Positions 30,692 to 31,428 of a DNA stretch of 47,687 nt are shown in pieces. A program made the translations under genes and the position numbers. This stretch comes from Thermoleophilaceae bacterium (GTDB lineage: Bacteria; Actinomycetota; Thermoleophilia; Solirubrobacterales; Thermoleophilaceae), in NCBI GenBank assembly GCA_040901445.1, contig JBBDYQ010000005.1, positions 1-47,687 on the forward strand. Direction: 5' to 3'. The number at the start of each line of letters is the position of its first letter. Within the stretch, counting starts at the first letter, position 1. The notes under the pieces are model-generated. The model was not told the origin of the DNA and made no database searches. It saw only the letters and a program-made list of their open reading frames with translations.

Positions 30692-30705
30692 GGGCGGCGG
30701 TCTAG

Positions 30706-30868
30706 GAGGCTGTCTCAGAACCCCGGGTGTGCGGCTGGCATGCGCCGGATCAAGCGGGGCAAGGACGCAGGATCCCGGGCAATGCAGAGCATTGGCGGGG
30801 TCCGAGGACGCAGCATCCGCGCCGATCCGCCGCCGCCAGACGTGCGCGGGGGGTTCTGAGACAGCCTC
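30706..30868. repeat. Whole-element palindrome R1 between convergent genes
   Basis: This 163-bp element has perfect 19-bp terminal inverted repeats: GAGGCTGTCTCAGAACCCC at 30706-30724 and its reverse complement at 30850-30868. The core ATGCAGAGCAT (30782-30792) is exactly central (76 bases on each side) and is itself a 4-bp stem with AGA loop. The remaining arms are also largely complementary (for example CTGGC and CGGATC recur in register), so the RNA or single strand could fold into one long imperfect hairpin. It ends at the stop codon of the selenoprotein-like gene. A second copy-like element lies at 40648-40812. Confidence 0.85.
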
Positions 30869-31428
30869 TAAGAGGCGCCCGCGCGGACCGCCTCGAGGAT
30901 GGCCTCCAGGGACGGGTTGTCCGCCGGGTCGGCGTTGTAGTGCGCGAGCACCACCGCTCCGCCGCGGGCCACCACGAACGTGCCGGGACGCTGGGCGTGG
31001 GGGTCGGGCTTGCCCGGAGCGCCGCCCGTGCGCACCGCCTTCAGGAAGCTCAGCGCGACCTTCGGGCTGACGTAGTCGCGCGCCTGGCCGCGGTCGAGCC
31101 CCACGGCACGGTAGGCGTCGCGCTGCGGGTCGGCGAGGCAGTCGAAGGGCACGTCACGCCGGTTGCAGTAGTTGCGGGTGGGCTGGGCGCGGTACTGGAA
31201 GACGGCCACGATGTCGCCGCCGGCGGCCCGGATCTCATCCTCTGCCCGGCCCAACTGGACCAGGTGCTCCTTGCAGAACGGTCAGCCGAAGTGGCGCATG
31301 AACGCGATCACGAGCGACGAGCTCGTCCAGCGATCGCTGAGCGCCACGGGGCCGTCGACGGACTCCACCTCGAGGGTGGGGAACGGATCGCCTTGCGCGA
31401 GTTGCGGGGCGGTGACTTCGCGTGCCAT
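30868..31428 (-). CDS. Peroxiredoxin-like redox protein, predicted selenoprotein (Sec49)
   Basis: Reading through one in-frame TGA (31284-31282) gives a 186-residue thioredoxin-fold protein starting MAREVTAPQLAQGDPFPTLE. The TGA falls in VIAFMRHFG-U-PFCKEHLVQL, precisely where AhpC/TSA-like 'redoxin' proteins have the first Cys of C-P-F-C. Coding style and homology-like pattern continue on both sides in the same frame, so an ordinary nonsense mutation is unlikely. The second Cys (52) is kept, giving a UxxC redox motif. It resembles SelL-related redox proteins. A candidate SECIS hairpin lies directly downstream. Conventional calling would start at TTG 31254 and lose the active site. It is divergent from gltB. 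Confidence 0.8.
31252..31284 (-). promoter_or_regulatory. Sec TGA codon and candidate bacterial SECIS hairpin
   Basis: In mRNA sense, UGA is at 31284-31282. Fifteen bases later CACCU (31266-31262), loop GGUCC (31261-31257) and AGUUG (31256-31252) can form a stem with one C/U mismatch; further out GG can pair with CC after a small internal loop. The GGUC-containing loop 21-25 bases after UGA closely parallels the SelB-binding loop of E. coli fdhF (GGUCU at a similar distance). Folding was done by eye. Confidence 0.6.

What the first reader, a model, noticed from the sequence alone, without database searches (positions are those of the whole stretch)
30868..31428. Hidden selenoprotein: TGA in place of the first redox Cys of a peroxiredoxin-like protein
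With TGA read as Sec, one continuous frame of 186 residues from ATG 31428 gives MRHFG-U-PFC-KEHL, a UxxC motif exactly at the family's CxxC. The sequence before and after the TGA is coding in the same frame, and a hairpin with a GGUCC loop lies 16-30 bases after the UGA, much like the E. coli fdhF SECIS. Gene finders would report a truncated protein from 31254 without the active site.
Basis: partly seen in the sequence, partly recalled or inferred. Interest (0 to 1): 0.85.

Follow-up and report, generated by a model that had tools for sequence, protein, structure and literature searches.

The report
Genuine selenocysteine gene, SelL-like redox protein
The in-frame TGA is almost certainly read as selenocysteine, giving a peroxiredoxin-like (SelL-related) redox enzyme that ordinary gene finders would cut short; it is a well-supported new example of a known kind of protein.

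Summary
The frame 31428-30868 (- strand) is open except for TGA at 31284-31282. Read as Sec it gives a 186-residue protein with RHFG-U-PFC, above NCBI's cut-off for "SelL-related redox protein" (NF040769). The genome holds selA, selB, selD and tRNA-Sec (UCA), and a Sec-type formate dehydrogenase-like gene. Two paralogues and homologues across the order carry TGA at the same codon; others have Cys. All 11 TGA-form genomes that are at least 90% complete have selA. An 8-bp hairpin with an AGUU loop (31264-31245) fits the published bacterial SECIS model. In 22 Sec forms it is 97% paired, with two-sided changes at six of eight pairs; in 18 Cys homologues 51%, near shuffle level. The loop's Leu codon is TTG in 22 of 22 Sec forms, against 2% elsewhere in these genes. 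The fold is peroxiredoxin-like; the likely role is a thiol peroxidase or oxidoreductase with Sec49 attacking and Cys52 resolving. Sec insertion itself is inferred; no protein data exist here.

The parts
30868..31428 (-). selL-like gene: 186-residue UxxC selenoprotein (ATG 31428, stop TAG 30870-30868)
   Evidence: Continuous frame with TGA=Sec; NF040769 SelL_rel_redox 130 bits, cut-off 120; Pfam AhpC-TSA_2, Redoxin and AhpC-TSA all above gathering scores; AGGA 7 nt before the ATG
31282..31284 (-). Sec-encoding UGA codon, residue 49, first position of the UxxC motif
   Evidence: Same codon is TGA in 28 distinct sequences (window included) and TGC/TGT in 18
31273..31275 (-). codon of Cys52, the partner of Sec in UPFC
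   Evidence: Invariant Cys in alignment A1
31245..31264 (-). bacterial SECIS hairpin: CCUGGUCC-AGUU-GGGCCGGG; apical loop at 31256-31253, 25 nt after the UGA
   Evidence: 8/8 pairs, -13.3 kcal/mol; 97.2% paired with two-sided changes at 6 of 8 pairs in 22 Sec forms; 50.7%, near shuffle level, in 18 Cys forms; fits the bSECIS model of PMC13188914
31252..31254 (-). Leu59 codon TTG, whose first two bases are in the SECIS loop; also the false start of the truncated ORF 31254-30868
   Evidence: TTG in 22/22 Sec forms with Leu there, 2.2% of Leu codons elsewhere in these genes; truncated ORF

Best explanation
The gene encodes a SelL-related, peroxiredoxin-fold selenoprotein. SelB carrying Sec-tRNA-Sec (anticodon UCA) binds the AGUU-loop hairpin in the mRNA just downstream of the UGA and inserts Sec at residue 49. 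Sec49 sits just before the first helix after the central strand, where the reactive residue of thioredoxin-fold enzymes lies. It most likely attacks a peroxide or disulfide substrate and is then resolved by Cys52 through a selenenylsulfide, to be re-reduced by a cellular thiol system. Shown here by computation: frame, conservation, machinery, SECIS covariation, fold. Inferred: actual Sec insertion, substrate, reductant.
For: Frame and motif. selA 474 bits, selB 331 bits, selD 380 bits, tRNA-Sec 68.7 bits with anticodon UCA, all above cut-offs. Two TGA paralogues in the same genome (57% and 32% identical) and TGA homologues across the order; Cys at that column in the others. 21 of 25 TGA-form genomes have selA, the 4 without being 68-87% complete assemblies, against 5 of 12 Cys-only genomes (Fisher p = 0.018; completeness). 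SECIS covariation in Sec forms only. A second kind of Sec gene in the genome: formate dehydrogenase-like, with UH motif and a hairpin with AGU loop. Structure model pLDDT 83, peroxiredoxin fold, helix 50-61 right after Sec49.
Against: No protein-level data. Four TGA-form genomes of the order lack a detected selA, though their assemblies are incomplete. Sequences are related by descent, so P values that assume independence are overstated. For the window gene alone, 3% of synonymous recodings would also form all eight pairs, so the SECIS case rests on the comparison.
Confidence: 0.97

Rival explanations
1. Pseudogene or sequencing error: a Cys codon mutated to a stop, leaving a dead or mis-sequenced gene.
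For: A single TGA differs from TGC/TGT by one base; Cys homologues exist.
Against: The same TGA recurs at the same codon in 27 other sequences from many assemblies, two of them paralogues in the same genome; a covarying SECIS follows it only in the TGA forms.
Confidence: 0.01
2. Ordinary short gene: translation stops at the TGA or starts at TTG 31254, and the protein is 128 aa without the active site.
For: A mechanical ORF of 128 aa exists.
Against: The sequence before the TGA is conserved as protein, with the motif RH(F/Y)G. The putative TTG start is the Leu59 codon inside the SECIS loop.
Confidence: 0.01
3. TGA is read as another residue (Trp, Cys or Gly) by a variant code or by simple readthrough.
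For: The frame is open under any reading of TGA.
Against: Homologues have Cys, not Trp or Gly, at this column; the genome has the full Sec machinery; a specific SECIS hairpin is conserved.
Confidence: 0.01

Closest known systems
SelL-related redox protein family (NCBIfam NF040769)
   Same: Scores 130 bits against a cut-off of 120 over residues 16-180; paralogues and homologues match too.
   Different: This copy uses Sec at the first CxxC position; other members found here use Cys.
Selenoprotein L (SelL) of aquatic eukaryotes
   Same: Prx-like family with Sec in the redox motif (PMC2398784, calls SelL a Prx-like protein; the UxxU motif is from general knowledge).
   Different: UxxC here rather than UxxU; bacterial gene with its SECIS inside the coding region.
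Prx-like UxxC selenoproteins of bacteria (PF00578, PF08534; PMC13188914 Table 1, PMC2398784)
   Same: Peroxiredoxin-like domain with UxxC.
   Different: Whether any catalogued entry is this subfamily could not be tested; NF040769 is not among the domain ids of that table.
Human prostamide/prostaglandin F synthase (PDB 9us9/9usa)
   Same: Best sequence match among solved structures (E 7e-21); its CxxC aligns with the UxxC.
   Different: Cys, not Sec; eukaryotic; only distant similarity.

Membership tests
Bacterial selenoprotein gene | In-frame UGA aligned with a redox Cys of homologues | tested here: met
Bacterial selenoprotein gene | Genome encodes SelA, SelB, SelD and tRNA-Sec | tested here: met
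Bacterial selenoprotein gene | bSECIS: apical loop 3-9 nt, upper stem 4-16 bp, G in first two loop positions, 16-37 nt from UGA, MFE at or below -7.5 kcal/mol (PMC13188914) | tested here: met
   Loop AGUU (G second), stem 8 bp, spacing 25 nt, -13.3 kcal/mol; covariation
Bacterial selenoprotein gene | Sec present in the protein | not testable with these tools
   Needs mass spectrometry or 75Se labelling
SelL-related redox protein NF040769 | Score above the curated cut-off (120 bits) | tested here: met
   130 bits with Cys in place of Sec
Selenoprotein L (eukaryotic SelL) | UxxU motif (from general knowledge) | tested here: not met
   Motif is UxxC
Peroxiredoxin fold | Thioredoxin-like fold with the reactive residue at the start of the first helix after the central strand | tested here: met
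   Model pLDDT 83; helix 50-61 follows residue 49; top PDB matches are peroxiredoxins
Peroxiredoxin (enzyme) | Peroxidase activity | not testable with these tools
   Needs an assay

The most novel reading that the evidence does not exclude
The bacterial SelL-related family is a selenoprotein family that the 2026 catalogue does not list under this name, spread through a whole bacterial order. It has two different SECIS designs: AGUU-loop 8-bp hairpins in the main group, and ACCUC-GUG-GAGGU-type hairpins in the ULPC group. Sec and Cys exchange repeatedly, with the hairpin decaying after each loss.
Probability: 0.5. Interest if true: 0.5.

Novelty: new member of a known kind. Interest (0 to 1): 0.42.

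Why it matters
Standard annotation would truncate this enzyme and lose its active site, and the same would happen to its two paralogues here and to homologues across the order. The Sec/Cys pairs with and without the hairpin make a good natural test set for how SECIS elements arise and decay, and for SECIS prediction in GC-rich genomes.

Tried and rejected
A hairpin of that general kind does fit the ULPC subfamily instead. A WhiB search meant to help place the organism found no match, so the taxon remains unnamed. The genome-contig scan from the single protein gave only four distant Cys homologues. Automatic strand and frame choice mis-framed some relatives; they were redone by motif with the stated strands. 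Paper searches for the NCBI family name and for Sec in Solirubrobacter, a guess at the group, found nothing.

Full report
Observation. On the minus strand, ATG 31428 (with AGGA 7 nt before it) opens a frame that runs to TAG at 30868 with one interruption, TGA at 31284-31282. With TGA read as Sec the product is 186 residues long and holds MRHFG-U-PFC-KEH at residues 44-55. A gene finder that reads TGA as stop sees only 30868-31254 (128 aa, TTG start), which lacks the motif.

Family. The protein matches NF040769 (SelL-related redox protein) above its curated cut-off and the Pfam peroxiredoxin families. The best match by sequence to a solved structure is human prostamide/prostaglandin F synthase, whose CxxC aligns with the UxxC. 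A model built from the window protein (Cys for Sec) and four public homologues (pLDDT 83) has a peroxiredoxin fold, with a helix beginning at residue 50, directly after Sec49.

Machinery. The window lies in a 3.54-Mb, 25-contig genome. It holds selA and selB next to each other (C15), selD (C2, a Cys form: GCACK) and a tRNA-Sec of 68.7 bits with anticodon UCA. It also has a formate dehydrogenase-like gene with TGA at the UH position, followed by an 8-bp hairpin with an AGU loop. So Sec very probably is in use in this genome apart from the gene in question.

Comparative evidence. Two further genes of the family in the same genome (57% and 32% identical) have TGA at the same codon. Over the order (232 genomes held), I could line up 28 distinct TGA forms, the window's included, and, with four public homologues, 18 Cys forms; the TGA is at this codon each time. 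Of 25 genomes with a TGA form, 21 have selA; the four that do not are 68-87% complete. All 11 TGA-form genomes that are at least 90% complete have it. Of 12 genomes with only Cys forms among clear homologues, 5 have selA.

SECIS. Starting 17 nt after the UGA lies the hairpin CCUGGUCC-AGUU-GGGCCGGG (31264-31245), loop 25 nt after the UGA. It meets each numeric criterion of the published bSECIS model (PMC13188914). On 22 Sec forms 97.2% of cells pair, six of eight pairs show changes on both sides, no shuffle of 500 reaches the pairing or covariation score, and sliding the partner by 1-3 columns destroys it. On 18 Cys forms pairing is 50.7%, close to the shuffled mean of 46.4%. Synonymous recoding, which keeps the protein, gives 6.0 of 8 pairs on average against 7.8 observed in Sec forms; Cys forms do not differ from their recodings. 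For the window gene alone 3% of recodings would form all eight pairs, so the weight comes from the comparison. The Leu59 codon that supplies the loop UU is TTG in all 22 Sec forms with Leu, although TTG is 2.2% of Leu codons elsewhere in these genes. Sec forms with a ULPC motif have another hairpin (ACCUC-GUG-GAGGU type).

Mechanism. SelB delivers Sec-tRNA to the UGA with help of the hairpin (established for bacteria; inferred here). Sec49 would attack the substrate and Cys52 resolve it. Substrate and reductant are not known. Context gives no clue: the neighbours are glutamate synthase on the opposite strand and a patatin-like phospholipase.

Novelty. Prx-like UxxC selenoproteins and SelL are known kinds. 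The 2026 review table does not list NF040769 by name, but similar entries exist, so I call it a new member of a known kind.

Noticed in passing
30701-30873: A 39-nt inverted repeat (79% complementary, 95 nt between arms) whose outer end overlaps the stop codon of the Sec gene; the core GAGGCTGTCTCAGAACCCC also occurs as an inverted pair at G000:C1:145453-145513. Looks like a small mobile or terminator-like element.
   Followed up: partly
L111 (G000:C10:4164-4910, - strand): Formate dehydrogenase-like gene with in-frame TGA at the UH position and an 8-bp hairpin with loop AGU after it: another selenoprotein gene of this genome.
   Followed up: partly
L049 (G000:C2:85285-85815) and L057 (G000:C2:157739-158221): Two paralogous SelL-related selenoprotein genes, both with TGA and AGUU-loop SECIS.
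   Followed up: yes
L039, L051, L092, L094, L096: ULPC-motif subfamily with a different SECIS hairpin, loop GUG, GUC or GGUCG-like, about 21 nt after the UGA.
   Followed up: partly
L031 (G021:C37:16195-16692): Cys form in a selA-positive genome that still keeps 7 of 8 hairpin pairs but has loop AGCU: looks like a recent Sec-to-Cys change.
   Followed up: no
L030 (G010:C315:7082-7628): Close Cys-form relative with a frameshift just after the motif, in a 74%-complete assembly; real or an assembly error.
   Followed up: no
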